Assembly: GCA_025766275.1 (NCBI GenBank)
Contig: JAFKAC010000085.1
Span: 1 to 64,000, forward strand
DNA length: 64,000 nt
Direction: 5' to 3'
Source: Lactarius indigo
Taxonomy: Eukaryota; Basidiomycota; Agaricomycetes; Russulales; Russulaceae
Shown: positions 16,555 through 63,063 of the stretch, one piece after another
Layout: every line of letters begins with the position of its first letter
How positions within the stretch are numbered: position 1 is the stretch's first letter
Position numbers and translations under genes: made by a program
Notes under the pieces: generated by a model
Told to the model about the DNA's origin: nothing
The model's database searches: none
Seen by the model: the letters and a program-made list of their open reading frames with translations, nothing else

Positions 16555-16561
16555 ATTCATT

Positions 16562-23274: not shown

Positions 23275-23290
23275 GTCTGGGGACTCACGC

Positions 23291-30188: not shown

Positions 30189-30190
30189 TT

Positions 30191-30201: not shown

Positions 30202-30208
30202 ATTCATT

Positions 30209-32200: not shown

Positions 32201-32222
32201 ACCCATCGGCCTGGGTGAGGGC
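32182..32222 (+). promoter_or_regulatory. Programmed -1 frameshift site, gypsy copy 2
   Basis: Slippery G GGT TTT at 32182-32188 and the 28-nt conserved block at 32195-32222, identical to copy 1. Confidence 0.7.
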
Positions 32223-35200
32223 TCTAAATTGTAATTCTGTAATCATGACGCGCTTTCGTTCTCTTCGAATTCCAGTCTCGATTCGTACGAATTACAGAAT
32301 GGCCGACATAAAAGCACTAGTGGACTCGGGGGCCACTGACAACTTCATACACCCGAACTTTATCAAGAAAATGGGTATCGGGACCCAACAATTGATCCGA
32401 CCGCGGAAAGTCTGGAATATAGACAGTACAGAAAATAAAGCTGGGTCTATCACTCACTTCACCGACCTAGACGTATACGCCAATGGATATCACAGGACCA
32501 TGAGATTCCTTATCACGAACCTCGGAAACGAAGAAGTTGTCCTAGGTTATCCCTGGTTGGCGACCTACGAACCAACCATCAATTGGAGAGACGCGGTCAT
32601 ACATGAAAAGGTCATGCCAGTCGTAATCAGCACACAGGACAGTCTGGACCGTCATACCGTCATCGCTGCCGCTCTAACTGACAATGAGAAAGAGGCGATA
32701 ACCCTCGAACTGGACGAGGAGGATACGTGCTTGCGAGCAACTACGTCCACAGAATTGGCCATCCAGGCAAAAGGGGAGGAAGAACCCGTAGAACTGCCGG
32801 CAGTCTACCACGCCTTCCAACAACTCTTCAGCGAAGAAGCGTCACAACGATTCCCTCCCGCCAGGCCGTGGGACCACGCAATAGACTTCAAACCAGGCAC
32901 CCCTTCAGCAATAGACTGCAAGATATACCCACTAACACAAGAAGAAGAAGGGAAGCTCAAAGAATTTCTGGATGAGAAACTGCAACAAGGATATCTGCGG
33001 CCTTCCATATCCCTGTACGCATCCTCGTTTTTCTTTGTCAAAAAGAAGGACGGAAAACTACGCCCCGTACAGGACTATCGCACTATCAATTCGTACACTA
33101 TACGAAATCAGTACCCATTACCCCTAATTCAAGACCTCATTTACGACCTCAGCAACGCCCACATCTATACCAAGCTCGACATCCGCTGGGGATACAATAA
33201 TATCCGAATACGAGACGGCGATCAAGAAAAGGCAGCCTTCAAGACCAAGTTTGGCCTCTTTGAGCCAACAGTAATGTTCTTCGGCCTTACTAACTCGCCG
33301 GCAACCTTCCAGACGATGATGAATCACATTTATCGTGATACCATCGCAAAACATGAACTCCGCGGCACCGTCATCCGCGTCTACATGGATGACATCGGCA
33401 TCGCCACACGGGAGGGCGCCTCATCCGCTGACCACATAGCCGCGGTAACGGACGTTCTCCGCGTCGCTCAAGAACACGATCTCTACTTCAAGCTCGAAAA
33501 ATGCCTTTTCCACCAACCTCGGATGGATTACCTGGGGGTAATCCTTGAAAAGGGGGTAACACGTATGGACCCGGTAAAAGTTCGCGGCATCAGAGACTGG
33601 CCGACGCCAACCAAGGTCAGGGATGTACGGTCATTCTTGGGTTTCTGCAACTTTTACCGCCTTTTCATCCGAGGTTTCACAACCCACGCACAACCGCTCA
33701 ACCGGTTAACAAGGAAGGATACCGAGTGGAGCTGGGGAGACGACGAAGAGCGGGCCTTCAAAACCCTCAAACGACTCGTAACGGAAGAACCGGTGCTAGC
33801 ACACCCCAACTTACAAGATCAGTTCGAGCTGGAGGTTGACGCATCGGGATTCGCGGTAGGCGCAGTACTTCTGCAAAAGAAAAATGACGGTCGCAAGCAT
33901 CCTATAGGATACTACTCGGCAACGCTGAATGAAGCAGAGCGGAATTACGACATCTACGACCTAGAACTTCTCGCCATCGTTAAAGCCCTTCGCCACTGGA
34001 GACCTCTGCTCGCAGGATCTCCGCACAAGATCAAAATATTCTCAGATCACCTAAACCTCCAATACTGGAAAACTCCGCAAAAGATCAGTCGAAGGGTCGC
34101 TCGAGAAGTACTAGAGTTGATGGAGTACGACTTTGAGATCCATCACATCAAAGGGAAGAACAACGGCAGAGCGGATGCGCTATCACGACGACCAGACTAC
34201 GATCAAGGAGAGGGAGACAACCAAGGTGTGGTCGTCTTACCTCCGGAGGTATTCATACGAGCCACTAATGCTGCGCGTACTCTGGAAACACACCCGATGA
34301 TGCAACCGCCGAAGCGACGACAAGACCCCGCTATAATCAAAACCTGGGTCGATGCCCATCGCCTCAAGAAGATAGAAGGAGAATGGTACAAGGACGGGCG
34401 ACTGGTAGTCACCGGACCTATGACAGCGTACCGGGCCATTATACAAGACCATCACGATCCACCGGTACACGGACATCCTGGAATAAGCAGGACACAGCGA
34501 ATCGTGGAACGACACCACTGGTGGCCGAGCATCCGTCGGGATGTGTATGAATACGTAACGGGATGTGCTGACTGCCAGCGAATCAAAGTCAATACGAGAC
34601 CAACGCGTGCACCACTACACCCAATCACCGCTGTCAAGGACGCCCCTCCTTTCCATACCATCGCCCTCGACTTCATCACCAAACTGCCGACCTCACAGTC
34701 GTACGACAGCATTCTAACCGTTACCGATCACGATTGCAGCAAAGCGTCCATATTTATTCCCTGCAACGAGGAGATTACAGCAGAAGAGACCGCCATTCTG
34801 TACGTCAATCACGTGTTCAAACGATTCGGATTACCGCGTAAAATTATTAGCGACCGAGACCCCCGGTTCACTTCCAAATTCACACGAGAAGTATGCCGCA
34901 TATTGGGCATTCAACAGAACATTTCCACGGCCTATCATCCGCGTACAGATGGGCAGTCGGAACGGACCAATCAGTGGCTTGAACAATATCTACGATTCTG
35001 GGCCAACGAGCGTCAAGACAATTGGGCAGCGTATCTACCGATAGCAGAATTCGCTCATAACAACTGGCCCCACGAACACACGAAACAATCGCCATTCATG
35101 CTTCTGATGGGGTACAACCCGACCGCCGATTGGACGGATAAGCCATCTCCAATCCCAAACGTAATCACCAGACTGACACAACTAAAGGAGGCGCGCCGAT

Positions 35201-36921: not shown

Positions 36922-36951
36922 GTCTGGGGACTCACGCTGAAAAGGGGGTGA

Positions 36952-37410
36952 TGTTACGGTTCTCGCATTGGACCCTTACTGTACCGGTTGTGGCTACGGC
37001 TGTAAGGTATATTAGTCACGGACTCGGGGTTACGGTAGGAGTTAGGCGTTGTGGAATGACTCGATCCTAGTACAGGTAGTAGTAGTATTAGGATTGCGGT
37101 ACTTACGCGATACGTTGGACGCTACATTACGGTGACTCATAGCAGCGCTTGAAAGCCTGCTCTTCTTGTATTTAAGATAGCTGCGGAAGACCAAGACACG
37201 CCATCTTGGTCTTCTTCAATCGTCACTTCTGATTTCTCTCATTCTCATCTCTAAGACGCGCCTTCCATCGAGGAAGAGCCTCATCCACAATCTAGTGTCT
37301 GCGTACATCTAGCACCGCCTTCGAGCCATACGCCTCCGCGCGTGACCAGCTAAGTCATAGAAGTCGCCTTAACCGAGCTCAAGTCGAGCTAACGTCGTGA
37401 CGGCGTTACA
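36952..37410 (+). repeat. Gypsy copy 2, 3' LTR
   Basis: 459 bp, preceded by the polypurine tract (AAAAGGGGGTGA, 36940-36951) and followed by TSD TCCAG. Confidence 0.95.
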
Positions 37411-46057: not shown

Positions 46058-46063
46058 TTCAGT
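46058..46063. repeat. Target-site duplication of the integrase TIR element, left (TTCAGT)
   Basis: TTCAGT directly precedes the TIR terminus TATGGCAAG; the same six bases follow the right terminus at 63058-63063. Confidence 0.85.
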
Positions 46064-46380
46064 TATGGCAAGCAGGAGTGAGCAGGTCCATATTGAATAT
46101 CGCGAAACGAATATTCAAAACTCCGCTTCGCAGATCAAATAGCCAATTCGATAGCCTTACTCCCGGTATCGCCACTATCACTTGGATTATGTAATTACAT
46201 AATCATTCCCAATATCACCATATTCCCGGGACTCTGGCAATTCCTTTGTCCCTCTATTGTGACTCGGTCACATCGCCGCACGTGCAACTGTAGTGAGGGT
46301 CCGTGCGTCGTCTTGAACTCAGGGTTGGCAGCCCGTCGCTCCCTTTTTCCCTGGTGCGTGCCCCTCCTATACTAACTGCC
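46064..46380 (+). repeat. Left TIR of the integrase element
   Basis: Starts TATGGCAAGCAGGAGTG. It contains the palindrome ATTATGTAATTACATAAT and ends near CTAACTGCC. Inverted copy at 62739-63057. Confidence 0.88.
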
Positions 46381-47550
46381 CTGTTTTTTTTGAACTTTTT
46401 TATTCCGGCACATGGGTACAGACGGGTCATAGCTGAGACCTGTGCCCATCTTTGTCCAAGGTGCGTAATATTCCACATGATCTAAGCCGGGCGGTCTGTC
46501 ACTGACACCCAGTAACAATACCCAGTACACTTTCGTGTCGTGCACACACCGGCAATGCGGTCTTGGGTTCCCATGGCACAGCACCAGCACGCACCTTGCC
46601 ATCGATCGCTTTTCCCGTCGCTCTTCCCATCCACGCATGCACACACTCTCCCCGCCACACTATTGCTCTCTCCCTCACAACCACGCAACTGGACGACAAC
46701 GATTCCTCCGCAAGCCAGCCCCCTAGGCTACTTGCAAACAAGCTGCGCATCCTCGTGCGTCACCTTTGTTCACTAGGTACTACTAATCTTATAATAACAA
46801 TTTAGGGTGCACCCTGTCATCGGCCGCAACACTGGCCTCCGTTCATTACAATGACATTGTCTCAGCTCCCTTCTCTCTCTCTCAGCCCTCACGCTACCTT
46901 ACCCCCGAGATTTCGTGTCCCACCGCTGTGTTTCGATCGTCTCAGCGTCTCGACTCGTTTCCTATGCCACATCTCCCTCTTTCTATCATACCTTCATATC
47001 CCTTTCTGTGGTGGCTACTGGTCCATCCGTATCTAAACCACTGCTGTTGAATAGACCGGATTTCTCCTGTTGTTCGCTTGTGTGATTCTTGAGGTCATGC
47101 CACTCAACGGCACCGGAACACTCGTATCGTAAAGTCGGCCAGCTCTCGTCCTCCTCTCGGCTCCCTCATCCTTTATCGGTTTACGCTTGCGTTCGCATTT
47201 TCACGTCCGTTCGTTCAACCTTCCTGCTCCACCCTCTCGACGCCTTGACCTGATCATTGTCGCACCGGCACTTCACCAACACACCTTCAGATCTCCGCCT
47301 TCGGATCATGTGACGTTCTGGTCTGCGAGAGTCGCCTTTCCTGGGAGCGAAGGAGATGGCTCATCAACTTCCCATGTATTATATACATCCAAATCCGAGT
47401 TTGTTTGTTTGCTTTAACTAACTAGTGTAGGTTTAAAAGTAAGTTGGAAGTGGGTAGGCTACGGAGATATATCCAGGCTGTCGCTTTCGGGGTTGAGAAG
47501 GTTATGCAGTCCCGGGACACGCTTGGGCTAGTTTTACCAGTGCTCAGTAT
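46381..47550. other. Element-internal region without a supported gene
   Basis: Pyrimidine-rich, with short frames only (up to 93 codons) and no domain. CTCTCTCTC runs near 46870 and the overall composition look like a eukaryotic promoter or 5' leader, perhaps captured host sequence, but nothing identifies it. Confidence 0.4.
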
Positions 47551-50240
47551 TCATATAGTAAGAAATATTCGGAATGGGCAACACACCTGCTGGTCATACG
47601 AAGTCGGCACCTCAAAAAACTTGCAGATAACATTGCACTGGTGCTCCTTCTCAAAATCACGATGTGTTCCCCGAACATTGCCTTTGCTGAACAATTTGTG
47701 CCCTAGGTCACTGGGCATCAAATAAGAAGAAGTCGGTAGATATGAAGAGAGAGTTCCACACAGATGTGTGATGATCTGTGGGTCTGTCAGGAGGGTATCA
47801 CCCCCTAACGTCGTCCAAGGTGTTGTCAGCTACACATAATCAATGAGTCGGAAAATCCCTCACCCTGAAAATCCAAAGTGAATGCCTGGCAGCCCGTTCT
47901 CCAGTACTGCACATGCTGGCAAAAAGCGAGAAAATCGGCACGGTGGCAATTCTCACTATCATCAAAGTGGAGTGGATACGAGGATCCATTGTTAATATAC
48001 TTCCTCCAAGGTCCATCTTCGGAGGAGTGAATCAGCTCTTCAACTAGATATGCCTCCTTTTGTGCGGGTGCTACATTGGTGATTGCCAAGCCCGACTTGA
48101 CAAATTGAAACCGGGGAATTGTCACCGGACAGGTAACATTGTAACTCTGGTGATATAAAGCAATAAAGCTGTAAACGTCTTCAAGCAGTGAATCTGCCCA
48201 CTGAATGGAAAGCGCGTCGGCGGCCAGGTCCCTAATTTGCTCATCTGGAGAGAGGGAGAGTGTCGGGGCCACAGATGATGACACATCTGAGGTGTGGCTG
48301 TGGTTCGACAAGTAGGGTTGCTTAAGCGCAACTGAAGCAGTCGGAAATGGGGATGGCCCTGTAAGGTCTATTTTCCCTTCTCTCATGGACTTGAAAGCAC
48401 CGTATTGTAGTTTTTGAGCCATATTAAAGAGGACAAACCCATTTTGAGGCTGAACCTCATGCATCCACTCCCCAAATCCGGAGTTGGTGACGCTTTGTGC
48501 TAAGATAAGCGATCTTAATGGTTTGGTGGGACACAACCAAAATAGTATCGGAAACGACACTGTATTGACTAAAATTGTGTCTTGATCATGTCAGCAGATA
48601 AGGCCATAGTAAGAACACGTACGAAGGCCATTGATAGCAGCAGGCTGTGGCTCATGTTGGGCAATAAGTGCTTGTCGGATATCTTCCACAGAAGGTGACA
48701 CAGGATGTGGATCACAGAACTTATCGCTCCGTGTACGCTTCTGTGAGCTGGATACCTCTTTAACTTGCTCTTCAGATATTTTCCGTTTCTTGCCAAATAT
48801 TGGACGGGGCTTGGGACGGGTATGCAGACGTGTATTGACTTGTGACGGTGTGACCCGAGAGTCAAGACCAGATTTTGTGCGTGAGACAAGAAGCGTTGAC
48901 TTTGATTCCGACTCAGAGTCAGATGACTGCAGAGATATGAGAACAAAAATAGAGGCCATAAAAAAAAGTGTACAGATTCTTGATCCTTGAACTGTGTGCT
49001 AGCTTCAAGTTGCTCCTGGAAGTCCTGATGGGCCTTCGCTTTCTTGTAGTGGTCCACATTGATAACCAGCATGACATCTAGTTGCGTTGCGAGAGACTTT
49101 GACCTTAAGTTGGTTTTGGGTCCACCGGAGTTGAGACAGTACTCGAGAATTGCATGTTCTTTGTTGTCAAGATGTATACCATTGTTACCCCTTTTCAGCC
49201 GGACTGATTCGATGTGTTCCATATTGAGAGGAAAACCCTTAAACTCCTTGAGCCAATCCGATAGAAAGGCATTGAGGAGGAGGTGTTGGAGGTTTTCATG
49301 ACTAATCCGGATCGGAACGTATGCTATTGTGTCACACTTGAAAGTAGTCAGCATAAGTCAGCAATAGCGTCACAAAGCAATTAACATACATGAATGACGA
49401 AAGGCTGGATTCGTCCAGGCTGCTGTGCCGTCAGTCTTCCATTGAGGATTACTGTAATGGCATCCTGTCCACCAGCACGAATCCGCTCACGAAGCTGATT
49501 ACGCACAGCCTCATAATGTTGGAGTGCAAGAGGGGCCGTGAACTCCTTTGGGATGGTGATTTCAAGAGGAGGGAGCTCAAATGGCGCACCCTCACCTACT
49601 GGTCCTGGTGCCCAGCCCGTTGGGATCAAGTTTTGAAGTGAGGTTGAACGGTGGGACCCATTGGCAGGGGTGGTGTTGCGTTGTCCCAGTCCCAGTCTTC
49701 CTGACTTGTCTACCGGCCTAACTTGGGATTGGTTACCTAATTAAAGATATCAGCGAAAGGTATAAGCATGCCCGAGGAAAGGTGTGAATGTACCCACCCC
49801 TTTGAGACGCGGCTACATCCCTCCGAATTTGTTCAAAGTTGACAGAGTGAATCCGAGTGGCTTCTATGTGGTGATGGCTTCAGTGTTATATTTAAAAAGA
49901 AAATGAGGTACTTGCGGTTTAGTGAAGTGGTGGAAGACTTGGTCCGATAGTAGCTGTAACAATCTGGACAGACCAGCATCTCCGTTATCGTCCTGTTAGC
50001 CTCTCGTACCTTTACCTTCCTTGCTAACGTTCATGAGAACTCCTTTTTGCAGCGTTCACGTTCACATTGGATGGTCAGTGCCAGACGCGTGGATTGTTCT
50101 GGTGAATGCACGACCCCCAGACCCTCAAACTGGACACCTGGGTCCGATGTCACAGGAGGTGTGGCCGAAACTAGAAGAGACGGCTCCATGAGAGAGTGTG
50201 AGTTAAAAGGCATTGGGTTGAAAGAGGGCATGTTGAAAGA
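47551..50240 (-). pseudogene. Alpha-type protein kinase gene, probably decayed
   Basis: Reads as a multi-exon alpha-kinase gene. The N-terminal zinc-binding-like part has CERERCKKEF, then VCPDCYSYY. The middle has LIPTGWAPGPVGEG, YVPIRISHENLQHLLLNAF and LDVMLVINVDHYKKAK. The C-terminal catalytic domain has FVKSGLAITNV, AYLVEELIHSSEDGPWRKYINNG, HRADFLAFCQHVQYWRTGCQAF, GDTLLTDPQIITHL and DFEKEHQCNVICKFFEV, ending near 47551. These follow the fungal alpha-kinase pattern (atypical Ser/Thr kinases). An in-frame TGA at 50031, where Arg is likely, interrupts the zinc-binding part unless it is spliced out. Alpha-kinase genes are much expanded in mushroom genomes; this one lies inside a transposon. 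Confidence 0.65.
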
Positions 50241-50483
50241 GGGGGCGTGTTTGAACAACGTGAAACGCCGCACTTATTCACAATGAAGCCCAGGCCGGAT
50301 TGGTCCAAGTGCGCGGCTGTGGAAAACTTGCCATCTGCAAATGGACTGAGTTGAATGCGCTGAATATATTCCCAGCTTTTACTTCAGCAAGTAACATAAA
50401 CTAAGTACAATAAAGACAGTAGTTCCTGGGAGGTATTGAAATGTCAGCGGGCTTGCAAAAAAGTGATCTGTCAGTACGAACCT

Positions 50484-50934
50484 CTAAAACCATCGACGTT
50501 CTCGATTGATCTCATCAGGGCTCGACACTAACAAGGGCCCAATTGCCAGTGTGTCCATGTCGTCGGTGTAGTACCGCTCGACTTCATAACTGCACACGCA
50601 ACCGTTGTCGCACATGACCTGCATGCGTGTGGCATGTGAGCCAACTCGACGCGACAATGCTGACCGTACGACGCTCGAGGCCAATGTGTACACCATGCGT
50701 GACGGCAGTGGGATGGTGCGTACGGTGCGTGGAGGTGGGTGCGGCAGCAGGTTGCTCGCTTGTGCTGGCAGAAAAGGGTGAGCGATTGTGGAGTAGGTGA
50801 AAGTGCACAGGGTGCACGTGGAACTGCCGCACCTGCAGGGAGGCCGGTGTGTGACGTTGCAGATGACGCCGCGTGGATGACGCTGTGTGTGGATGTTGAG
50901 GCTGCGTGCTGAACTTGAATAGTGGCTGCGTGGG
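50484..50934 (-). other. Open region downstream of the ROT1 copy, identity unknown
   Basis: Minus-strand frames continue from the ROT1-like exon to a stop at 50484 with no domain. The frame after TTPNMLP appears shifted by one base relative to a ROT1-like tail (TQPLFKFSTQPQ in another frame). Probably degenerate. Confidence 0.35.
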
Positions 50935-51076
50935 AGCATGTTTGGCGTTGTGGAGACTAGGAACATGGGCGGAAGTGGCGACCCAGCAAACTGATACATG
51001 TGGAGCTTGGGCCCGTCGGTTGAATCTACGAAAATTTGCCACAGCTGGTATAGCTCCGTGTAGTGTGCAAGTGTCA

Positions 51077-51383
51077 TCACAGCCTCTTGTTGATGCCACG
51101 CTCCTGAAGGAACTTCTCAAACTCATCCTGAAGGCCAAGGTCGAGCAATCAAGGCCTGTTTCTCATATTCCAGTTCCTCCGCAATTTTCGCAGACATGAC
51201 ACCATCGGTAGTGCCCTCACCAAAGCGACGCGCAGAGACGGAGAAAGGAGCAGGTGTCGCTGGCACAGTGGTGATTTGCGAGAACACGGGGACGCGTGCA
51301 CGCGTTGAAATGAGTGAAGAGCGTAGAGAAAGAGCACGTGACGATGGTGCGGTAAACTGATGGACAGCACGGAAGACAGACAT
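51077..51383 (-). pseudogene. MAM33-like mitochondrial protein fragment with internal deletion
   Basis: The minus strand from ATG 51383 gives MSVFRAVHQFTAPSS, a basic Ser/Arg-rich presequence, then PFSVSARRFGEGTTDGVM and AEELEYEKQALI, as at the start of MAM33/p32-type mitochondrial acidic matrix proteins. The sequence then passes, in another frame, straight to DEFEKFLQERGINKRL, which resembles the near-C-terminal helix of the same family, and stops at 51077. The whole middle of the protein (roughly 170-180 residues) is missing. It sits within the ROT1 copy. Too short to work as MAM33. Confidence 0.6.
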
Positions 51384-51916
51384 GACGATTTGTAGAATGA
51401 GAGGTGGACAACGAGTGCCGTGAGATGAGGTACGCCTGCTAGTCGCGCGAGGCATGCGTCAACGAGTTAGGTGCGGCACTGAAGCAATTCGAGACGCGGG
51501 CGAGGACAAGTAGCCGGAAGCGCGGGACATGCACCAACGTGAATGAAAGCGGGATTGTGGGGTTTTGGCATGCCTGCTATCGGGCAAGCCGTGGACCACG
51601 CGGCTCGAATACCTGTGGGGTAGTCATTATGATGCGCTGTGGCAGCGGCCACGATGAAGGTGCAGGTGCGGACTCGGTTGGGGAGTGCAGGAATGCTGGT
51701 GAGCTGAGTGTGCGGGTGCAGGTGGATGCGTTTGGAAGGGGGACTGGGCACCGGGAGGGATTATGTGTTGGTACCCTCGGGAACATCTCGGACGTGCGCA
51801 GGAAGGAAAGCGAGACAGGCGAATCGGTGCAAGCCATGTCGAGCTCGGAGATGAGGATCGTAGATGGCGAATGCATGAGACTGGGCGTGTCTTCGATCTC
51901 GGATTTTTGGGACGCA
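51384..51916. other. Unidentified segment between ROT1 and MAM33 pieces
   Basis: The minus frame from the ROT1 exon stays open through a Ser/Thr/Pro-rich stretch, but it resembles no ROT1 sequence. It may be promoter or leader DNA of the captured MAM33 gene, since it ends just upstream of the MAM33-like start codon. Confidence 0.45.
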
Positions 51917-52419
51917 TGAACCTCGTTGTAATTCTCCAAGAAATCGGAGGTCGCGGAACAGGGCGCCTGGATCTGGATTTGTTGGAAGCCGTTGCCAAAT
52001 GGGTACATGGTCATCGACCCGTTGGAATTATATGTAAATTTGCCATGGACCCAGCTCATGACGCCGGTGATGCATTGAGAAGATGAGCCTATGAGCGGAC
52101 AGTTGAGCGTATATTGAGGCGGCAGGCTGCGGATATACTCACCATTGCCGTACATCCGGTATCATGCAATCTCATAGACCGTCTTCGGTGCTAAAAGGGG
52201 ATGAACATCAGATCAAATTTAAAAAGGAGGCGAGGATCACGCACATAGAAAGGAGATACCTGTCGTCGAGGGATAGTTGAAGCTGACGTTGGCCGGATTT
52301 ACGAACGACTATTCAAATTCCCGACGCGCGTGAATGACTGCTTGTGCACGAAGGCCCACACATGATATGCACAGAACCAGTGATAACATTCTTTGAACCT
52401 GATGCCCATGTCCCGCCAA

Positions 52420-52595
52420 TGGGGGTGGCATTATGTGCCGAGTTGAACTGCGCAAGGGCAGCAGGAATGGTCATGAGGGCTAAGAGAGCGAGAGAGTTGA
52501 CAAACATGGGTGAGAGCCTTATGTGCCGAGTCGAACTGTGCAAGGGCAGCAGGAATGATCGCGAGGGCTAGGAGAGCGAGTGAGCTGACAAACAT
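52420..52595. repeat. Tandem duplication of the ROT1-like first exon (88-bp step)
   Basis: Two adjacent copies of the signal-peptide exon (ATGs at 52595 and 52507, 88 bp apart) give MFVSSLALLALAIIPAALAQ and MFVNSLALLALMTIPAALAQ. Since 88 is not divisible by three, reading from the outer ATG runs out of frame in the second copy. Confidence 0.8.
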
Positions 52596-52881
52596 GGGAA
52601 AACTGAAAGCCAAGGTATTAATAGGGGAGGGAATTTCTTTGCACTCACGGGCGAAGGGAAAAGGAGTGGTCTTGAGGGCTTGATGGGGACGCGAGTGTGC
52701 GTGGGGACAACGACAATGTGGACGAGGTGAAAATTTTGACACCGTAAGCAAGGCCGGGACAAGCCCCTTTACCATAGAAACCAAGGTACAAAATGTTAAC
52801 TATGTTGGAGAGACATCGACTCAGTGAATGGTCAAATTGCGTGTTGATATTGTAAGATAGTAGGAACTGAATGAGTATTTA

Positions 52882-53423
52882 CTAAAAATCGAGCCCAATA
52901 CCGTGGCCCTCCTCCGAATCGTCGACGTCTTCGACATCGGTTAGATCAACTATTAGAGTGCTTCTTTCGTCATCAGACTTGTCCACCACCAGTAGTTCGT
53001 CCTCATCCGCCCTGAGATCTGCAGGTAACTCCTCCCAACAATCCTCAGGCTGGGAAACAGCAGAAAGACTCTGACAAAAAGCCCCATCCCATCCCATGCT
53101 TCGGAGCGCATCGCGGATGTGTAAGTAAATTTCCCACGCATTATCGAACTGTGGCTCTGGAGATCCCATGTCCGTCCACACGGCATTTGCACGCACAGCA
53201 AATGCATGAGGGACCAAATCAAAAACTGGGTCATCTGGAGGAGCGTACTTCCGCTCGATCTCGTCAAAGGTTTCTGAGGAAACAGTGATCTAGTCAAATA
53301 TGTTAGTGATGTAAGAAGATAAGACAGTATAATATACCTTATAGTCCGCAGCGTTCCATTTATGTGGCTTTTGTAAAATGATCATGGGAATGCCATGGGG
53401 TAGAACTTTCTTGCGATCGGCAC
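52882..53423 (-). pseudogene. Integrase-like DDE protein, 3' part (split by gypsy copy 3)
   Basis: Exon 53338-53423 gives ADRKKVLPHGIPMIILQKPH and ends WNAADYK. A 48-nt intron (53290-53337, GTATAT...TAG) leads to the last exon 52882-53289, with APPDDPVFDLVPHAFAVRANAVW, an acidic region DEDELLVVDKSDDE and stop at 52882. At the insertion edge the frame joins the 5' part across NQRNWTKRRA-DRKKVLPHG when one GGCAC copy is removed. This tail (PxHPVFxLVP...) is typical of the agaricomycete integrase-core family I recognise. Confidence 0.72.
53419..53423. repeat. Target-site duplication of gypsy copy 3 (GGCAC)
   Basis: GGCAC at 53419-53423 is repeated at 61228-61232. Confidence 0.92.
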
Positions 53424-53932
53424 TGTTACGCTCCACCGGCGTTAGTCCGACTTGGACTCTGAAGAGGCGTATTCGACTTAGCGAAAGTTTAGGCGAATGG
53501 GGACCACGTGTCAACCCAATGCAAGCTGAACAGGAGCACACCGGCACACACTGCAGCTAAGGCAAAGAAGCACTATCCCTTGGTGGATAGGAGCGGAGGC
53601 ACACTTAGTCAAAGACCAAGGCAAGCAAAAGACGAGTTAGGATGGTGGATTGAAGAAGACCAAGATGGAGACTCTTGGTCTTCCGAGTCAACTACTTATA
53701 CAAATACATGCGGGCTTTAAAGCACCGCTGGAATAGTACATAACCAATAGCGTAACTAGCTCGAACCCTAGTACAGCTATCCTAGGAATGAGTCATACAT
53801 GAGTCACAATCACATGCGAACTACTATGCTGACTGATGTGAAGTAAGAGTCCATGACTAATACTGCTACCGGACCGTAGTCATAACCGGTCATGAGTCGT
53901 GTAGAATGAGTCACCAAGTCCGTACCGTAACA
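53424..53932 (-). repeat. Gypsy copy 3, 3' LTR
   Basis: 509 bp, direct repeat of 60719-61227. The polypurine tract AAAAGGGGGTGA (minus strand, 53933-53944) abuts it. Confidence 0.93.
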
Positions 53933-53964
53933 TCACCCCCTTTTCAGGAGTGAGGCCCACCTCA

Positions 53965-56900
53965 CTAGTCTGCTACCGATTCCTTCCTCATCCGTTCTGC
54001 TTCATCTTCCATCCGTGCCAGTATGTTAGCACGTTCCAATCGATAGAGACTGTCCTTTTTGTCCGTGATTACCATCTCCCTCTCCATCTGCAACTGCCGA
54101 ATTCGCTTCTCTAACTGGTCCTCGGCAAAGGCGAACTGCCGAAACCGGCGCAGCTCTTGAGTAAGGGTGACGTCCCCGATACACATAAGCAGCAGGTCTG
54201 TGGGATGTCGATCACGGAGCATAAAATACTCCTCGTGGGGGATAAAGGCGCGGTTGTTCTTTGGGAGATGCGGAGTGGCGTAGAGGGGTTTTCCGTAAAG
54301 GAAACCAGATCCCGGAGCTAGTCCGAGAACGAAGGGGTCTCCTCCTCGGATAACCTGTACGTGAGATGCTTGTACCATCGGTCCATTGGGGAGTTTGATC
54401 GGGAACGGAATGTAATCGGGTCCTCTATTGACCCGGAACCCTTCAGGGACGACGACCCTGGTTGCTGGGTCTTGTTCGCCCATTGGTGTATAACAAGCTG
54501 CTTGTGCCACGGCAATTCTTCCCCTGTGTAAAGGCCCCCCCGATGCATCGATGAGGTAGGGAGTGGCGGCTGGATCTTCAGCGTAGAATTCATGGTTAAG
54601 GAATGCGTGCCTGATGGGGTAATGGTCTCCAAGTTCGTCTTCATCCTCATCTTCGTCCAATACTCCCTCCGCTCCTTCATCATCCAGTGTCGGCATGCGG
54701 CGATATGCAGTTGCTCCTGCTGCCACCGCGCCGCCGTCTCCTTCCATTCTTGTTCGTACTTCTTCATGGCGTCGGGAGGTTGTACCGCGCGGGACAGCTG
54801 CTTGAAGCCGAAAGAGCTCGTCTTCCGTGAGGAAGACTTCGGGCTCACCGGTGTCAGGGTTTGTGAGGGCGTACATTGGCAGAGGTGCTGGTTGAGTTGT
54901 TGCTGGATCGTCGTCGAGAGTTCCCTGTACGGGCACAGGGAATCGCTGCAGTGTCTGGTGCAGTTCTTCACTAGTGATAGGGCCGTCTTCCTCATGCTGC
55001 ACGGAGGTACAGCCTCCATCTGTAGTTCTAGTGGTTGTGGTGTTGTTGGTGGAGTCAGGGTTAACAGGCGTGGCGGAGGAGTCGTTGACGAGGGTAGAGA
55101 GGAGTGCGAGCTGGTCATTGTGTCGAGTAGAGGACATAGGAGGAATGAGAGATGGGGACTCATCACGACAGAGGGCCATCCTTATATGCGTTTCTCTGGT
55201 GGGGTTTGAATGTTTGAATTCCCGAACGGCTTCATCGGCAAATATGTCATCCTTATCGATCCATTGGTTATCGGAGTCTGGGTACCCCTTCCATTTCACG
55301 AGGTATTGGAGCCGGCATCTTCTGCCGAATCGCCGAGAGTCCAGAATCTTCTCGACTTCGTATTCTTCTTCGTTATCAACCAAATCAGGTGGTGGGCGCT
55401 GATAGTTTGGTCCGTGCGTGGGTGTCTCGCGATAAGGTGTGAGAAGATCTATGTGAAAGACATCGTGGATGCTCCACTGCGTGGGAAGTTTGAGGCGATA
55501 ATTGACAGGGGACATCACCTGGATAACCTTAAACGGTCCATGCCGTTTAGCAGCGAGTTTTGCGGTTGGTTGGTGCGTGCGTAAGTGGCGCCCTTCTAGC
55601 CACACGAGGTCTCCTTTTTCGAACTTGGGCGTATCTTTATGTTTGATCCATGACTTTTGCGCCCAGAGCATACAGGAGAAGGCACGCTGTCGCGCTTGTT
55701 TAAACTGATCGAGCCTTAGTGATACCTGTGGGATAGGGGAAGGCCTATCGGTCCAATCAGTGCGAGGGTTGAACCCTGATAAGAGAAAGAAGGGGGACTC
55801 CTGCGTGGTCTCGTTAGGCCAATTGTTATGTGTAAATTCTGCCATTGGCAGATAACGAACCCAGTCATCTTGTCGTTCGTTTACCCAAAAGCGGAGGTAT
55901 TGCTCTAGCCATTGGTTTGTTTGTTCTGATTGGCCATCGGTTCGGGGATGATAAGCGGTTGAGATATTTTGGCTGATGCCAAGGATTTTGCATATCTCCT
56001 GCATAAACTTGGATGCGAAACGAGGGTCTCGATCACTGATGACACGCGAGGGGAGTCCAAAGCGTGGGAAAACATGGGAGACGTACAGAGCGGCCGTTCC
56101 CTCGGCTGTGATTTCTTCATTACATGGGATGAAAACAGCTGCCTTAGTACAGTCATGATCGGTTACGGTCAGAATTGAGTCATAACCGTGGGATACGGGG
56201 AGCTTAGTGATGAAGTCCACTGCAATGGTTTTGAATGGCAGGGCTTCCGGTTTGGGATAGATGGGTTGTAGAGGTGCTCTAATGGGTCGAAGATTAACTT
56301 TGTGTCGTTGGCATTCGGCACAGCCTTTGACATAGTCTGTGACGTCGTTTTTCATCTGCGGCCACCAGTAGTGTCGTTCGGTAAGTTGGAGAGTTCGTTT
56401 GATACCAGGATGACCATAAACTGGGGAGTCATGGTGGGCTGCGATAATGGTACGTTTGTCATGGATTCCGCCGGTGACCACTCGGCGTCCGTCTTTGTAC
56501 CACGTCCCCTCGATGTCTTTTAGCTTATGAGCGTCAACCCAAGGTTTCAACTTAGCTGTGTCTTGTTCATAGATGGGGTGTTCCGGAGTCATTTCTACCG
56601 GTAGGATCTCGGGTCTCCAATGTGGGTGTCGCGGTTCTTCTAGCGTAGTAGCGCGTACAAAGACGCTTTTGGGCAGTACCGTGATTCCCTCGTTATCATT
56701 TTCTCCTTGGTCGTAGTCTGGTCTTCGTGATAGTGCATCAGCGCGTCCGTTAGAAGTCCCTTTGATGTGGTGAATCTCGAAATCGTATTCCGAGAGTTCG
56801 AGTACTTCCCTGGCCACGCGTCTACTGATTTTTTGTGGTGATTTCCAGTATTGTAAGTTGAGATGGTCGGAGAATACTTTGATCTTGTGAGGGGAACCCG

Positions 56901-58749
56901 CTAAGAGGGGTCTCCAGTGGCGAAAGGCTTTGACGATTGCGAGGAGTTCGAGGTCGTAGATGTCATAATTTCGTTCGGCTTCATTGAGGGTGGATGAGTA
57001 GTAGCCGATGGGGTGTCGTTTACCATCTGCTTTTCGTTGAAGAAGGACTGCGCCTGTGGCGAAGCCAGATGCGTCGACTTCTAATTCGAATTGCTGTGTG
57101 AGATCTGGGTGCGCTAAGACGGGTTCACTAGTGACGAGGGTTTTAAGGTCTTGAAATGCCTTTTCCTCTTCGCTCCCCCAGTGCCATTCGGTATCTTTGC
57201 GTGTGAGTTTGTTAAGTGGTCGCGCTTTGGTTGCAAATCCTCATATAAAGGGTCGGTAAAAATTGCAAAATCCAAGGAAAGAGCGGACGTCCTTAACTTT
57301 GGTTGGCGTTGGCCAGTCTTTAATACCCGAAATTTTGATGGGGTCCATGCGTGTCACCCCCTTTTCAAGGATTACCCCCAGGTAATCCATACACGGGGAG
57401 TGGAAGAGGCATTTCTCAAGTTTGTAATATAGGTCATGTTCCGCGGATACGCGGAGAACGTCTTTAACTGCCTCGATGTGATCTGATAAGGAGTGAGTAA
57501 GACCCGTAGCGATGCCGATGTCATCCATGTAAACCCGAATAACTGTGCCGCGTTTTTCATGCTTTGCGATGATGTCCCTGAAGATGAAGTTCATCATAGT
57601 CTGGAACGTTGCTGGGGAATTAGTTAAGCCGAAGAACATCACCGTTGGTTCAAATAATCCGTATCGCGTTTTGAACGCCGCTTTTTCTTCGTCTCCCTCT
57701 TTAATGCGTATGTTGTTGTACCCCCATCTAACGTCGAGCTTGGTATAGATGTGGGCGTTGCTGAGGTCAGTGATAAGATCAGAGATGAGGGGGAGTGGGT
57801 ATTGGTTGCGAATGGTGACAGCGTTGATTTTCCGGTAATCTTGAACGGGTCGCAACTTACCATCCTTCTTTTTGATAAAGAAGAAGGACGAGGTGTATGG
57901 AGACTTAGAGGGTCGTATGTATCCCTTTTTCAGTTGTTCATCGATCCATTCGCGCAGTTTCTTGTCTTCTTCCTGAGTCATAGGGTATATTTTGCAGTCG
58001 ATGGTGTCAGCTGTCCCTGGTTTAAATTCGATGGCATGATCCCAGGGCCTGCTGGGTGGAAACCTGTCCGATGCTTCTTCGCTGAAGAGACGTTCGAATT
58101 CGCGGTATTCGGGGGGTAACTCAGCTTTAGTAACATATTGCTGAGCGGCAATAGCGAGGTCAGTAGCGGTGGCTCTGATTTGGCATCCTTCTTCAAATTG
58201 TTGTCGTTGTTCGTCTGTGATAACACAAGAGTGTACAACTTCATAATCATCGTTCTGAGAAGTGGTTGCCGCGATCGTTGTGGTTTTGAGGTAGGGATTG
58301 GTTGAGCGAATAATGATGGGGAGCATATCTTCGTGGATGGCGGCTTGTGACCATTTGATGTGTGGGTCGTAAATAGCGAGCCAGGGGTATCCTAATACGA
58401 TGTCTTCATTGCCGATGTCTGTAATAAGGAAGCGTATTTCCTTGTGGATTCCTTTAGTTTGGACATCGACGTCCATATAATGAGTGATACGTCCCGATTT
58501 ATTCTCCATATTATCAATATTCCATATTTTCTTCGGGATGTCGAGTAACTTGGTCCCGAGCCCCATCCTTTTTGCAAAGGAGGGTTTCATGAAGCAATGG
58601 GTTGCTCCTGAATCAACTAGTGCTCGTATGTCGGCCATTGCGTAACTGGTGCGAATCAATACTGGAACTCTCATAGAACGATAGCGAGTCATGATTACAC
58701 TGTTACAATTAACTGCCCTCACCCAGGCCGATGGGTTCAGGCGTCCTGA
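53965..58749 (-). CDS. Gypsy copy 3 pol, with one in-frame TGA
   Basis: Read from the -1 frameshift at 58749 to the stop at 53965. Domains: protease ALVDSGATHCFMKP; RT with SPYTSSFFFIKKKDGKLRP and VYMDDIGIATG; RNase H EVDASGFATGAVL; integrase with CAECQRHK, VDFITKLP, SDRDPRFASKF and HPRTDGQSEQTNQWLEQY; chromodomain EEYEVEKILDSRRFGRRCRLQYLVKWKGYPDSDNQW; and the same extra C-terminal region (EGFRVNRGPDYIPFPIKLPNG, DPFVLGLAPGSGFLYGKPLYA, then coiled coil). A TGA at 57241-57243, after CNFYRPFI, stands where copies 1 and 2 have CGA (Arg), so one C to T change in a CpG inactivates an otherwise complete pol. Confidence 0.92.
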
Positions 58750-58755
58750 AAACCC
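58715..58755 (-). promoter_or_regulatory. Programmed -1 frameshift site, gypsy copy 3
   Basis: Minus strand G GGT TTT at 58749-58755, then the 28-nt block at 58715-58742, identical to that in copies 1 and 2. The upstream G GGA AAA of those copies is not conserved here, which points to G GGT TTT as the real slip site. Confidence 0.75.
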
Positions 58756-60737
58756 TCCTTTTTCCACAACTGCTGGAGGATAATGTCTTTCACATCATCT
58801 GATTCTCCCGCTACTCCGTTAAGCCAGTCGCTGGTGCGCTGTTGAGGGGGTACGTCTTGGACTGCCCTAGTGGCAACTTCGGGTTCTTGTTGATGATAGT
58901 CGGTGTCGATATACCGACTAGTAGACGCTTGGGGCTGATAGCCTCCTCGTGGTTGTCTGCAATCTCGTGCCATATGCCCGTCCTTTCCGCAATTATAGCA
59001 AGTGACTGGCCTTTGGTTGTTACGTCCTCCTCCTCTTTGGAGGAATCCCCCCCTTGGTCGGTATGGGGGACGCGGAGCAAGTATATCCTCTGCTCCTGCA
59101 AGTCGCCCTCGGATTCGGTCCGCCGAGGTATCCATAGCATTAGGGTCTCGGGGCAGGTTTCGCGGCTGCCAGGAACTTCTTGGCGGTCCATGCCATTGTC
59201 GCGATTGGCGTGGGCGTCCTTGTCCTTGCCCTGGGGGGGCTCCTTTGTTTAGTACCGCTTTGAGGTGGAGGTACTGCTGTTGGCGAGTAGTGGCTGCTCT
59301 CTTCCATTCTTGGTAGTTACGGGGATTGTTGAGGGTATAGACCTTTTCATATAGGTCTTTTGGTAATCCACTTGCGAATAGATCCAACGTTTGGGGATCG
59401 TCGAGTCTGTATTGAGCGTGGCGTATGAGCTGTTCAAACTGCGTGCAATACTCATCTAGGTTGCCCCCGATCATTTTAACTCCTTTTTTGAGCTCGTATT
59501 GAGCTTGTTCTTGCTCCATTGTGTTGCAGAAGCGCTGCATGAAGCTACGCATAACTTCATTCCATAATCCTTCACTAGTACGGGGTATTCCAGCTTGTAT
59601 CTGGCCGTTGAGCCAGGTAAGCATGGCTAATACCCATTCGCTAACGTTGATGCCTTTGATGTAAGAGAGAAAGAGTAGGGCGTGTCGGTATGGGGTCACC
59701 ATGATGCCTTCATCAGCATTCATGCCCCAGTAAACATGCCATTGAGTGAGGAACGCTTCTACTTTGGCGCGTTCTCTGTCGAATACTGTAGGTGCTTCGC
59801 CAGCTAATTTGTTACTTGGAGGGGGAATAATGGGGCCTGCACCTGGTAATCCCCCTCCCGGGGGTCCTCCTCCTGGTGGTCCTCCTGGAAATCCTCCAGG
59901 AAACCCTCCGAACCCAGCTCCTCGTGACGGGGGTCCTCCTCCTCCTGGTAAATTGCCAGGGGGTCCTCCTCCTCCGCTAGGGGGGTCGGGTACATCTGGC
60001 CCGATGGCCCGGTGAATTGCTACGTCGTCTTCAGTCATTCGATGACCGGTATAAGGGTTGATGGGAGCCAGATTGGCTCGAGATTCTTCTGTAATGCGTC
60101 TTTGCTCTTCTAGGGCTATTTGATCCTGAGCTTCGACGGTGAGTTGAAACTCTTCTTGAGTGACTGTGGTAGTTGCCATTACGGCTGCTGGGCTGTGGAT
60201 GTGAATTACTTCTGGTTCGTGTTGATGGATGGTGAGGGACTCAGTTCGTTGTATGATATGATCGCCAATAGCCCCTAGGCTTGTTTCTTCTGCTGGTGTT
60301 GTTCCCCTGCTTGGTGATTGACTTTCGGAGGCTTCCTCTCTGCTGACTCCTTCATCTGTATGTTCTTGCGTTTGTCCATCAATAGGACCATAGTCTGCGC
60401 GGCTATTAAGTTCTCGCACGTCGATGTCGCAATTGTAGTTTCTTCCGGCTGGTCGTACGATGTCCCAGCGATGGTCTATGGGGTTCCAAGTAACCTCGGT
60501 CCAACAGAGATGTTCAAAATTGAACTCAACAGGTCGGAAACAGTTAGGACCGTTAAATTCTACGAAGTATCCAGTATCTCCTCCTCGTTCTCTCCACTGA
60601 GCTGCCCCTAGGAATCTTGTTGGTACGTTGCGATCTCCTCGTCGTTCAATATGATAGGGACGGAAAGACGTCCACTGGTCTCTGGTCGAGTACGCCACAA
60701 TGAGGATCTTGGTCTTAATGTTACGCTCCACCGGCAT
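58737..60737 (-). CDS. Gypsy copy 3 gag
   Basis: About 666 residues if started at the ATG at 60737, which lies inside the 5' LTR; the 3' LTR has ACG at that place. The conserved N-terminal region (WTSFRPYHIERRGDRNVPTRFLG) begins about 20 residues later. A Gly/Pro-rich linker, a capsid region (FLTQWHVYWGMNADEG to LYEKVYTLNNP) and a zinc knuckle CYNCGKDGHMARDC near 58990 follow. It ends at the TGA in the frameshift block. Confidence 0.88.
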   Translation of the reverse strand: MPVERNIKTKILIVAYSTRDQWTSFRPYHIERRGDRNVPTRFLGAAQWRERGGDTGYFVEFNGPNCFRPVEFNFEHLCWTEVTWNPIDHRWDIVRPAGRNYNCDIDVRELNSRADYGPIDGQTQEHTDEGVSREEASESQSPSRGTTPAEETSLGAIGDHIIQRTESLTIHQHEPEVIHIHSPAAVMATTTVTQEEFQLTVEAQDQIALEEQRRITEESRANLAPINPYTGHRMTEDDVAIHRAIGPDVPDPPSGGGGPPGNLPGGGGPPSRGAGFGGFPGGFPGGPPGGGPPGGGLPGAGPIIPPPSNKLAGEAPTVFDRERAKVEAFLTQWHVYWGMNADEGIMVTPYRHALLFLSYIKGINVSEWVLAMLTWLNGQIQAGIPRTSEGLWNEVMRSFMQRFCNTMEQEQAQYELKKGVKMIGGNLDEYCTQFEQLIRHAQYRLDDPQTLDLFASGLPKDLYEKVYTLNNPRNYQEWKRAATTRQQQYLHLKAVLNKGAPPGQGQGRPRQSRQWHGPPRSSWQPRNLPRDPNAMDTSADRIRGRLAGAEDILAPRPPYRPRGGFLQRGGGRNNQRPVTCYNCGKDGHMARDCRQPRGGYQPQASTSRYIDTDYHQQEPEVATRAVQDVPPQQRTSDWLNGVAGESDDVKDIILQQLWKKEGFQDA
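60706..60716 (-). promoter_or_regulatory. Self-priming primer-binding site, gypsy copy 3
   Basis: Minus strand AAGACCAAGAT two bases after the 5' LTR, complementary to ATCTTGGTCTT in the LTR (60951-60961 on the plus strand as AAGACCAAGAT). Confidence 0.75.
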
Positions 60738-61227
60738 TAGTCCGACTTGGACTCTGAAGAGGCGTATTCGACTTAGCGAAAGTTTAGGCGAATGGGGACC
60801 ACGTGTCAACCCAAGGCAAGCTGAACAGGAGCACACCGGCACACACTGCAGCTAAGGCAAAGAAGCACTATCCCTTGGTGGATAGGAGCGGAGGCACACT
60901 TAGTCAAAGACCAAGGCAAGCAAAAGACGAGTTAGGATGGTGGATTGAAGAAGACCAAGATGGAGACTCTTGGTCTTCCGAGTCAACTACTTATACAAAT
61001 ACATGCGGGCTTTAAAGCACCGCTGGAATAGTACATAACCAATAGCGTAACTAGCTCGAACCCTAGTACAGCTATCCTAGGAATGAGTCATACATGAGTC
61101 ACAATCACATGCGAACTACTATGCTGACTGATGTGAAGTAAGAGTCCATGACTAATACTGCTACCGGACCGTAGTCATAACCGGTCATGAGTCATGTAGA
61201 ATGAGTCACCAAGTCCGTACCGTAACA
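60719..61227 (-). repeat. Gypsy copy 3, 5' LTR
   Basis: 509 bp. Minus strand TATA-like TGTATAAGTAG (60988-60998) lies about 30 bp upstream of the start motif. The inverted repeat GAAGACCAAGA / TCTTGGTCTTC (60950-60960 and 60968-60978, 7-nt loop) has the same stem as in copies 1 and 2 although the surrounding LTR is diverged. Confidence 0.93.
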
Positions 61228-62588
61228 GGCACGGCGCTTGGTCCAGTTGCGCTGATTGACCCAGGCATCAACCTCCTGCTGTATGAAAGGAATAAAAATA
61301 AAGCGGAACACGAGACTGAAAATGCTTAGCATTGCAGAGTGAGGTTCTTATTAAGTAATATTAACGTACCATTCGAGAGGGTCTCCGATGTCATAATACC
61401 CTTCGTCGACCCCTTTATCAAGCAATTTTTGAAATCCAGTGGCCCAGTCCCTTCGAAAAACGGACCAGTGAATTTCTGGTTTGATATTTCCATGCTTGCG
61501 GAACCACCGATGTTGAATGGAGCCATCCAGGGATGGCTCCATGTGATGGCGCAGAGCCGTCTGTGCATAAGCCACGTTGACGTTTTCCGTCCCTGGATCG
61601 CTCTGCGTGATGAGGGGAATACCTGGAAAAAAAAAAAATTTTACCATCAATTAGGTAATCAAAGCACGTACCACCCATGGCCCAGGCTGCGTTAAGGTAG
61701 AAGCGCGCAATCAGTTTTGGATTCCTGACTGTCCACCAGACTTTGCACCAATGGATCACGCCTGGATAAGGGTCAAGACCAACGTGAAAGAAGAGCCCAT
61801 AACGTTTGAATTTGTCGTGCTGGTCAAGACACCACATCTCATTTGGGCCAATAGCTAGGAATGTCCGCCGCTTGAACTTTTGGTACCGCCGTGCCTCAAC
61901 GGCATCTGGCTCAGTCTGTCAGAGAAACTCTGAGATAACAGGCCTTCGTAATATGTCAGTATCATATTCATATGCAGAACGTGGGACACACCTTGATACA
62001 TGAATCTTGTTCTCAAAAAGAAGGGCCTTCCTGATCGTTTCAGCACCGCGATTGGGAAAACGTTTTTTGACCTCGATAACATGACTGGCAATACTTTGGA
62101 CCGTGTGCTTTTGTCGACGTGTGCTTTCCAAGCCCCACTTTTGACGTCGCCGGCGAACAGTAAAAACACTGAAAAGAGAAGCCATTTAGGATGCTATGAC
62201 ATTGTACAAGGTAAGAACATACCTTAAACCGTAGGACGTAGGGTCAAAATGGTCCATTGCAGAGCTAGCGATTTCCTTGTCGTTCATACCGAGATTAAAA
62301 TAGAGCGTAAGCACTGGTTGGAGTTGGTCATTTGGAGCTGTCAACGACGAAATTTAGAGTGAAAGGTGGGAAAAGGGACAGACGTACGGCAAGGTAGATG
62401 CTGGTTTGCTTGCATCTCACGGCCAGTAGCCCTGCTTGTAGCGTATTGTTCTGTATCTGGATATGTCCAAAAGGTAAAGTAAGGAGGCAGACAAGGAGGC
62501 GGAAAAATTTGGAAAGTGACTGACCTGGCAAGTCCGAGTCCATTGGCGGTGCGAGTGTTCGCGCACGGCTGTGCCTTACAGGTGGCAT
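61228..62588 (-). pseudogene. Integrase-like DDE protein, 5' part (split by gypsy copy 3)
   Basis: Start ATG 62588 (MPPVRHSRARTLAPPMDS). In-frame exons: 62525-62588, 62388-62456, 62223-62337, 62168 down to about 61990, about 61917 down to 61672, 61370-61622 and 61228-61315. The exon join near 61920-61995 is not resolved. The N-terminal helical/HTH region has LTLYFNLGMNDKEIA, FTVRRRRQKWGLESTRRQKH and VIEVKKRFPNRGAETIRKAL. The catalytic core has MWCLDQHDKFKRYGLFFHVGLDPYPG, IPLITQSDPGTENVNVAYAQ and NIKPEIHWSVFRRDW, giving a plausible D, D, E triad with 40 residues between the last two, then FRFIFIPFIQQEVDAWVNQRNWTKRRA. This fits an agaricomycete integrase-core family and is the probable transposase of the surrounding TIR element. 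Broken by the gypsy insertion. Confidence 0.72.
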
Positions 62589-62738
62589 GATAATACCAGA
62601 CCTACCAACCAACTTGAGTTTCCGGAACAATGTTGGGTGAGTGGGACGGGAAAGGGAGAAAAAAAACACATCAAGCGCTTGCCGCTAGTAGGACATGAGG
62701 ACAGTTGAAAACAGCTTTTGTATTAACATTAAATTCCT

Positions 62739-63057
62739 GGCAGTTAGTATGGGAGGGGCACGCACCAGGAAAAAAGGGAGCGACGGGCTGCCAACCCTGA
62801 GTTCAAGACGACGCACGGACCCTCACTACAGTTGCACGTGCGGCGATGTGACCAAGTCACAATAGAGGGACGAAAAGGAACTGCCAGAGTCCCGGGAATA
62901 TGGTGATATTGGGAATGATTATGTAATTACATAATCCAAGTGATAGTGGCGATACCGGGAGTAAGGCTATCAAATCGGCTATTTGATCTGCGAAGCGGAG
63001 TTTTGAATATTCGTTTCGCGATATTCGATATGGACCTGCTCACTCCTGCTTGCCATA
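62739..63057 (-). repeat. Right TIR of the integrase element
   Basis: Inverted copy of 46064-46380, ending CTTGCCATA, followed by TTCAGT (63058-63063). Confidence 0.88.
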
Positions 63058-63063
63058 TTCAGT

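What the first reader, a model, noticed from the sequence alone, without database searches (positions are those of the whole stretch)
46064..63057. Integrase-bearing TIR element that carries pieces of host genes: candidate new cargo transposon family
It has 317/319-bp inverted repeats, an exact 6-bp duplication (TTCAGT), a DDE integrase-like gene beside one TIR, and an interior made of host-derived sequences: an alpha-kinase gene, an intron-containing ROT1 copy and a MAM33 fragment. A 6-bp TSD and retroviral-type integrase fit Polinton-like chemistry, but there is no polymerase or capsid gene. A DDE-integrase element that picks up genomic gene copies would be a basidiomycete parallel to Pack-type elements or Starships, with a different enzyme. 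I know of no description linking this integrase family to such TIRs.
Basis: partly seen in the sequence, partly recalled or inferred. Interest (0 to 1): 0.88.

Follow-up and report, generated by a model that had tools for sequence, protein, structure and literature searches.

The report
Mushroom jumping gene carrying host-gene scraps
This stretch of a milk-cap mushroom genome is a jumping gene of the IS3EU type, predicted to move by cut-and-paste, that has its own alpha-kinase gene and carries copied pieces of the mushroom's own genes, one of them lacking its introns; such elements likely pick up host genes while broken DNA is being repaired.

Summary
The window carries one copy (46064-63057) of a four-copy DNA transposon family in Lactarius indigo, with 317/319-bp inverted repeats and a TTCAGT duplication. 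Sister copies have 6-bp duplications GTTACT and AAGTTG; a diverged copy has 5 bp (GTGCG). Searches with joined flanks found a relative without the element for all four; of the two compared base by base, one is clean and the window's is altered at the site.

Ends (TATGG..CCATA), duplication, integrase-type transposase and alpha-kinase match what Kojima (2025) reports for fungal IS3EU transposons. The alpha-kinase is the element's own gene, found in four of four copies and under purifying selection (dN/dS 0.24). The 17-kb size comes from a nested gypsy retrotransposon that splits the transposase; sister copies are 9.5 kb.

What looks new is the cargo between transposase and kinase. Three copies share ROT1, MAM33 and other host fragments; the diverged copy has NDC80 and others there. 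MAM33 lacks three introns exactly, so it passed through RNA; ROT1 keeps intron sequence. My reading: a new variant, a self-mobile IS3EU with a host-fragment slot, likely filled during DNA repair (inferred).

The parts
46058..46063 (.). target-site duplication, left copy (TTCAGT)
   Evidence: sequence
46064..46380 (+). left terminal inverted repeat, begins TATGGCAAGCAGG
47587..50189 (-). alpha-kinase gene of the element, 8 exon pieces matched from C59; one stop codon in the first piece in this copy (50033)
   Evidence: PF02816 39.2 bits on joined C59 exon translations; exon matches
50413..50600 (-). remnant of a host gene 3' end shared with the C168 copy (resembles NDUFA9; that name is recalled); boundaries approximate
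50649..50917 (.). fragment matching host locus C281 (83%), gene not identified
50920..51064 (-). ROT1 gene fragment, part 1 (host locus C237:517854-517999, 93%)
51081..51414 (-). MAM33 fragment without introns (parents C225, C92, C13)
51473..51923 (-). fragment of a multicopy host gene family with no Pfam match (80-90% to the C36 copy)
51923..52734 (-). ROT1 gene fragment, part 2, with presumed intron sequence and upstream region (host C237:517996-518727, 90%)
52885..62588 (-). transposase gene (exon pieces matched from C59; rva_4 / IS3EU type), split by a nested retrotransposon and with an in-frame TGA at 61921; broken in this copy
53424..61227 (-). nested Ty3/gypsy retrotransposon inside transposase exon 6; LTRs 53424-53932 and 60719-61227; duplication GGCAC; not part of the element
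62739..63057 (-). right terminal inverted repeat, ends CCTGCTTGCCATA
63058..63063 (.). target-site duplication, right copy (TTCAGT)
   Evidence: sequence

Best explanation
The locus is one copy of a low-copy DNA transposon family of Lactarius indigo, IS3EU-like in its ends and genes, that encodes a DDE transposase and an alpha-kinase and carries copied host gene fragments between them; it likely moves by cut-and-paste and likely took up the fragments as filler during DNA-break repair. Shown by the sequence: the TIRs; 6-bp duplications at three copies and 5 bp at the fourth; relatives of the flanks without the element; a conserved D-D-E triad with 58 and 40 residues between; purifying selection on both genes; host parents for the cargo; exact absence of three MAM33 introns; and a gypsy insertion that breaks the transposase here. 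Inferred: that the transposase cuts at TATGG ends and makes 6-bp staggered joins; that the kinase helps the element (target unknown); and that cargo entered when breaks inside the element, such as those left by excision, were patched by copying chromosomal DNA and, for MAM33, a spliced transcript or its cDNA. The window copy can no longer make an intact transposase; the exons compared in C59 and C112 show no stop or insertion.
Against: One of four copies has a 5-bp duplication. The window's own element-free relative (C237/C65, 91%) is altered at the insertion point. Transposase and kinase share an orientation here, while TET-bearing IS3EU have them opposed. No Repbase IS3EU sequence was available, and no rust protein appears among the 120 of 139 profile hits listed, so the filing rests on ends, duplication, domain and gene content, not on a tree. 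An uninterrupted kinase reading frame was not shown even in C59: my first splice joint did not fit in frame, the window has a stop in exon piece 1 and C168 one in piece 7. Of five kinase relatives, three hit PF02816 and two (P0094, P0098) hit nothing. dN/dS used one best match per exon, leaving 134 of 519 transposase codons out. Within this genome there are only two cargo sets, since three copies share one by descent. The repair route and any kinase role are inference.
Confidence: 0.86

Rival explanations
1. The host fragments were not captured by the transposon at all: separate insertions (a retrogene, another transposon, segmental copies) landed inside it over time and simply ride along.
For: MAM33 plus a gene-family piece forms a block inside the ROT1 fragment, so cargo arrived in steps. 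The window and C168 copies also carry gypsy insertions, so the element is a frequent landing site.
Against: The MAM33 block has no target duplication, and the MAM33 copy ends inside the gene rather than at a poly(A) tail. Both subfamilies hold several unlinked host fragments in the same interval between transposase and kinase.
Confidence: 0.25
2. The element is Polinton-like, with polymerase and capsid genes lost.
For: 6-bp duplication and an integrase fold.
Against: In the 9.5-kb C59 copy, 10 of 19 listed ORFs were scanned and none hit a polymerase, protease or capsid family. Ends and gene content match IS3EU, which the 2023 tree places apart from Polinton, though without statistical support.
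Confidence: 0.02
3. The alpha-kinase is a captured host gene rather than an element gene.
For: Host alpha-kinases exist in fungi (recalled).
Against: Its longest exon is in 4 of 4 copies, including the one with 75% TIR identity, and was found nowhere else in the genome; dN/dS 0.24 over 721 codons; the same pair of genes occurs in TET-bearing IS3EU by report; L. akahatsu transposase P0009 and kinase relative P0098 are listed on contigs of the same length, 96,619 bases.
Confidence: 0.06

Closest known systems
Fungal IS3EU transposons of Kojima 2025 (PMC12730594; abstract, passages, first part of the discussion and figure legends seen)
   Same: 6-bp duplication, TIRs over 30 bp, ends TAYGG..CCRTA, transposase plus alpha-kinase, extra sequence lodged between the two
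   Different: Those reported carry a TET/JBP dioxygenase in the gap and have transposase and kinase in opposite orientations; here both genes point the same way and the gap holds fragments of unrelated host genes
IS3EU/GingerRoot superfamily (PMC10045372; passages seen)
   Same: integrase-type DDE transposase without an HHCC domain, TA..TA ends, usually 6-bp duplications
   Different: no host-fragment cargo or kinase is mentioned in the passages seen
Pack-TYPE transposons of plants (PMC8903248, search listing with start of abstract; PMC13317346, passages)
   Same: copies of host gene pieces between transposon ends, usually non-functional
   Different: Pack-TYPE elements are non-autonomous plant transposons; here the carrier keeps a transposase gene, and one fragment is intron-free
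Fungal Helitrons with captured genes (PMC4289320, search listing only)
   Same: gene-fragment capture by a basidiomycete DNA transposon
   Different: rolling-circle elements without TIRs or target duplications (recalled)
Starships (recalled)
   Same: cargo-carrying fungal mobile elements
   Different: tyrosine-recombinase driven and far larger with intact cargo genes (recalled); no such enzyme among the ORFs scanned here

Membership tests
IS3EU | target duplication usually 6 bp | tested here: met
   3 of 4 copies exact 6 bp; C168 copy 5 bp
IS3EU | TA..TA ends, in fungi TAYGG..CCRTA | tested here: met
   TATGG..CCATA in 4 of 4 copies
IS3EU | TIRs over 30 bp (fungal families) | tested here: met
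   317-461 bp in 4 of 4 copies
IS3EU | integrase-type DDE transposase without an HHCC zinc domain | tested here: met
   PF24764 only, no H2C2 model hit; D-D-E with 58/40 spacing; integrase/IstA/TnsB fold
IS3EU | transposase clusters with Repbase IS3EU in a tree | not testable with these tools
   Repbase and the papers' supplementary data were not available
TET-bearing IS3EU of rusts and truffles | alpha-kinase gene in the element | tested here: met
   4 of 4 copies
TET-bearing IS3EU of rusts and truffles | transposase and alpha-kinase in opposite orientations | tested here: not met
   both on the - strand in the window; so it is filed under IS3EU, not under this subgroup
TET-bearing IS3EU of rusts and truffles | TET/JBP gene between transposase and kinase | tested here: inconclusive
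   the gap holds other host fragments and no TET/JBP model was hit, but not every ORF was scanned
Pack-TYPE transposons | captured host coding DNA between TIRs | tested here: met
Pack-TYPE transposons | non-autonomous | tested here: not met
   transposase exons without stops in C59 and C112; NCBI gene model P0001 on the C59 contig
Polinton/Maverick | polymerase B and capsid genes (recalled) | tested here: not met
   none in the 10 of 19 ORFs of the 9.5-kb copy that were scanned
Starship | DUF3435 tyrosine recombinase captain (recalled) | tested here: not met
   mobilising gene is a DDE integrase type; no such domain in scanned ORFs

The most novel reading that the evidence does not exclude
Mushroom IS3EU transposons are self-mobile gene collectors: they carry a selected alpha-kinase and keep a fixed slot between transposase and kinase that is repeatedly filled with host sequence, both chromosomal DNA and spliced messenger RNA copies, so that the rust TET/JBP capture is one case of a general process and RNA can feed gene capture by a DNA transposon.
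Probability: 0.35. Interest if true: 0.72.

Novelty: new variant of a known kind. Interest (0 to 1): 0.52.

Why it matters
Gene capture by DNA transposons is best known in plants (recalled), and a 2026 review (PMC13317346, passages) says that a yet undiscovered route may bring fragments of unlinked genes into them. Here a little-described fungal superfamily shows several unlinked host fragments in one slot, including an exactly spliced one, which makes an RNA- or cDNA-fed repair route directly testable. It also shows that the alpha-kinase, mentioned only in passing in the one IS3EU paper found, is kept by selection across a deep split between copies, so it likely does something for the element.

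Tried and rejected
Polinton-like and Starship-like readings were rejected (see membership test). Whole-family profile searches of the genome for PF02816 and PF24764 returned nothing, and their control genomes stayed silent too, so they say nothing. A structure of the kinase from five fragmentary relatives came out at pLDDT 31 and was not used. Sequence search of the kinase against solved structures gave only weak hits to myosin heavy chain kinase A over the C-terminal motif (E 0.57; E 0.013 for relative P0096). I asked whether the NDUFA9-like piece in the C168 copy is spliced; its gaps are not exact introns, so only MAM33 is claimed as spliced. I looked for short non-autonomous relatives with the same ends: none, 8 of 8 pattern hits belong to the four copies. 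The first dN/dS run let alignments run through introns and was discarded; the exon-by-exon run is the one cited. A first attempt to splice the kinase gave stops at my joints, so later kinase queries join exon translations without settled splice joints. No paper on Lactarius indigo transposable elements was found. Literature searches behind the novelty statement: IS3EU + transposon (32 papers, 25 listed), alpha-kinase + transposon + basidiomycete (20, two), IS3EU + alpha-kinase (28, one), at least two of IS3EU / captured gene / fung (29, 146 papers, 20 listed), Pack-type + gene capture + DNA transposon + fung (69, one), Pack-TYPE + transposon + gene capture (72, three), alpha-kinase + DNA transposon (73, four).
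Full report
Observation. The inverted repeats 46064-46380 and 62739-63057 are 97.2% identical over 319 columns, and 0 of 50 base shuffles of the element gave a comparable end match. TTCAGT sits directly outside both ends. A genome-wide search with the left TIR found eight hits, which pair into four copies: the window (contig C276), C59, C112, and a diverged copy on C168 with 75-76% TIR identity. A 27-base end pattern with up to three mismatches found the same eight ends and none in the reversed control. The host is Lactarius indigo, inferred from protein records on contigs of matching length.

Anatomy of the copies. C59 and C112 are 9,489 and 9,521 bp, 99.2% identical to one another. The window copy is 16,994 bp because a Ty3/gypsy retrotransposon with 509-bp LTRs (53424-53932, 60719-61227; 99.4%) and a GGCAC duplication lies inside transposase exon 6. 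C168 is 18,003 bp and also carries a gypsy-like element, with 460-bp LTRs that are identical. Duplications are TTCAGT, GTTACT and AAGTTG for three copies; for C168 the repeat next to the ends is 5 bp, GTGCG.

Mobility. Joined flanks with one copy of the duplication were searched for all four insertions. C59 has a clean element-free relative at C224 (98% over 600 bases; a single GTTACT in a 79/80 match around the site). C112 lies in a repeat, of which a copy at C46 matches across the joint (listed at 100% over query bases 226-600). C168 has a relative at C226 that spans all 600 bases (96%). The C46 and C226 matches were not viewed base by base. The window has relatives at C237 and C65 (91%), but there the insertion point itself differs, so the exact pre-insertion site is not shown. 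I infer recent activity from the 99% identity of C59 and C112 and the clean C224 site.

Alpha-kinase. Joined exon translations of C59 hit PF02816 at 39.2 bits (cut-off 21.3). The longest kinase exon occurs in 4 of 4 element copies and at no other place in the genome at this sensitivity. Exon-by-exon comparison of C59 with C168 gives dS 0.643, dN 0.152, dN/dS 0.24 for the kinase (721 of 749 codons) and dS 0.366, dN 0.062, dN/dS 0.17 for the transposase (385 of 519 codons; one best match per exon was used). Both values indicate purifying selection, so I treat the kinase as an element gene. Against this, I could not show one uninterrupted kinase frame: my first splice joint did not fit, the window copy has a stop at 50033 and the C168 copy one in exon piece 7. 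Five relatives were found, all in Lactarius species, with only the 7,994 candidates sharing most words scored; three of the five hit PF02816 and two do not. The L. akahatsu relative P0098 and transposase P0009 are on contigs listed with the same length, 96,619 bases, which suggests linkage there.

Cargo. Between transposase and kinase the window, C59 and C112 copies share host fragments: ROT1 (parent C237, 90-93%), MAM33 (parents C225, C92, C13), part of a multicopy gene family with no Pfam match, a C281 fragment, and a short piece of a gene that looks like NDUFA9 (name recalled; weak RmlD hit only; located in C59 and matched by DNA in the window). The C168 copy has, in the same interval, a fragment of a long open frame at C39/C24 with no Pfam match (89-91%), an NDC80 fragment (parent at C217, PF03801, 81%), a 94-base piece of C215 (93%) and a longer stretch of the same NDUFA9-like gene. 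So one fragment is shared across the subfamilies and the rest differ. Three lines from other species point the same way but rest on gene models: a L. quietus transposase model that runs into a thioredoxin domain (P0005); in L. akahatsu a transposase model (P0022) and a relative of the kinase gene's N-terminal part (P0098) that share a 47-residue, 89%-identical stretch, after the one and before the other; and a Panaeolus cyanescens model that runs from the transposase into part of a protein-kinase domain (P0159). Of the 42 proteins scanned, only P0005 shows a foreign domain of this kind.

How the cargo arrived. The main ROT1 block matches its parent over 592 columns with only 13 gap positions, including a presumed intron that I recognise from the reading frame and GT..AG ends, not from a gene model, so it was copied from DNA. 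MAM33 lacks introns exactly at two joins in C59 and at a third in the window copy, so it passed through RNA. MAM33 and the gene-family piece form one block inside a ROT1 exon; the ROT1 edges share at most one base, so there is no target duplication, and the MAM33/ROT1 join has a 3-base overlap. MAM33 is truncated inside the gene, unlike an ordinary poly(A)-ended retrocopy. I infer that the block is filler copied in during repair of a break. That breaks come from element excision is a further inference.

Comparison with what is known. Passages of PMC10045372 give IS3EU TA..TA ends and usually 6-bp duplications. PMC12730594 reports fungal TET-bearing IS3EU with 6-bp duplications, TIRs over 30 bp, ends TAYGG..CCRTA, a transposase, an alpha-kinase and, between them, a TET/JBP gene. 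The present family meets the general marks but has transposase and kinase in the same orientation and unrelated host fragments in the gap. Among the papers reached by the searches listed under Tried and rejected I found no description of such cargo in IS3EU; most subscription papers are not in that library.

Verdict. A real IS3EU-type transposon family, likely active in the recent past: new variant of a known kind. The strongest new points are the host-fragment slot in an element that keeps its transposase, the exactly spliced fragment, and evidence that the kinase is maintained by selection. The mechanism of uptake and the kinase's role remain inference. After re-checking, confidence in the best explanation was lowered slightly (0.88 to 0.86) because an uninterrupted kinase frame was not shown.

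Noticed in passing
window 16100-23720 and 29747-37367: Two long direct copies 13,647 bases apart (96.8% identical over the 8 kb compared), each with 663-aa and 1603-aa reading frames; their size and order suggest gag and pol of a gypsy retrotransposon, which was not tested.
   Followed up: partly
C168 copy (L011/L012): The transposase side is 85-86% identical to the other copies while the kinase side and TIRs are 74-76%, and dS differs (0.37 vs 0.64): the element may be a recombinant of two subfamilies.
   Followed up: partly
L009 6740-7110; window 52428-52598: The ROT1 signal-peptide region is tandemly repeated within the cargo, with more repeat units in C59 than in the window copy.
   Followed up: no
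L035 (C112:1353155-1353358): An isolated match to the transposase (47% identity over 70 residues, three stops) away from any copy; likely an old remnant.
   Followed up: no
window 51577-52155 (-): A 192-codon open frame joins ROT1 (PF10681) to the gene-family piece; C59 has the same join but with a stop upstream of it, and the window lacks 201 bp of the gene-family piece. Possible chimeric reading frame, no evidence of use.
   Followed up: no
P0159 (Panaeolus cyanescens): An IS3EU-type transposase model continuing into the C-terminal part of a protein-kinase domain, possibly another captured fragment.
   Followed up: partly
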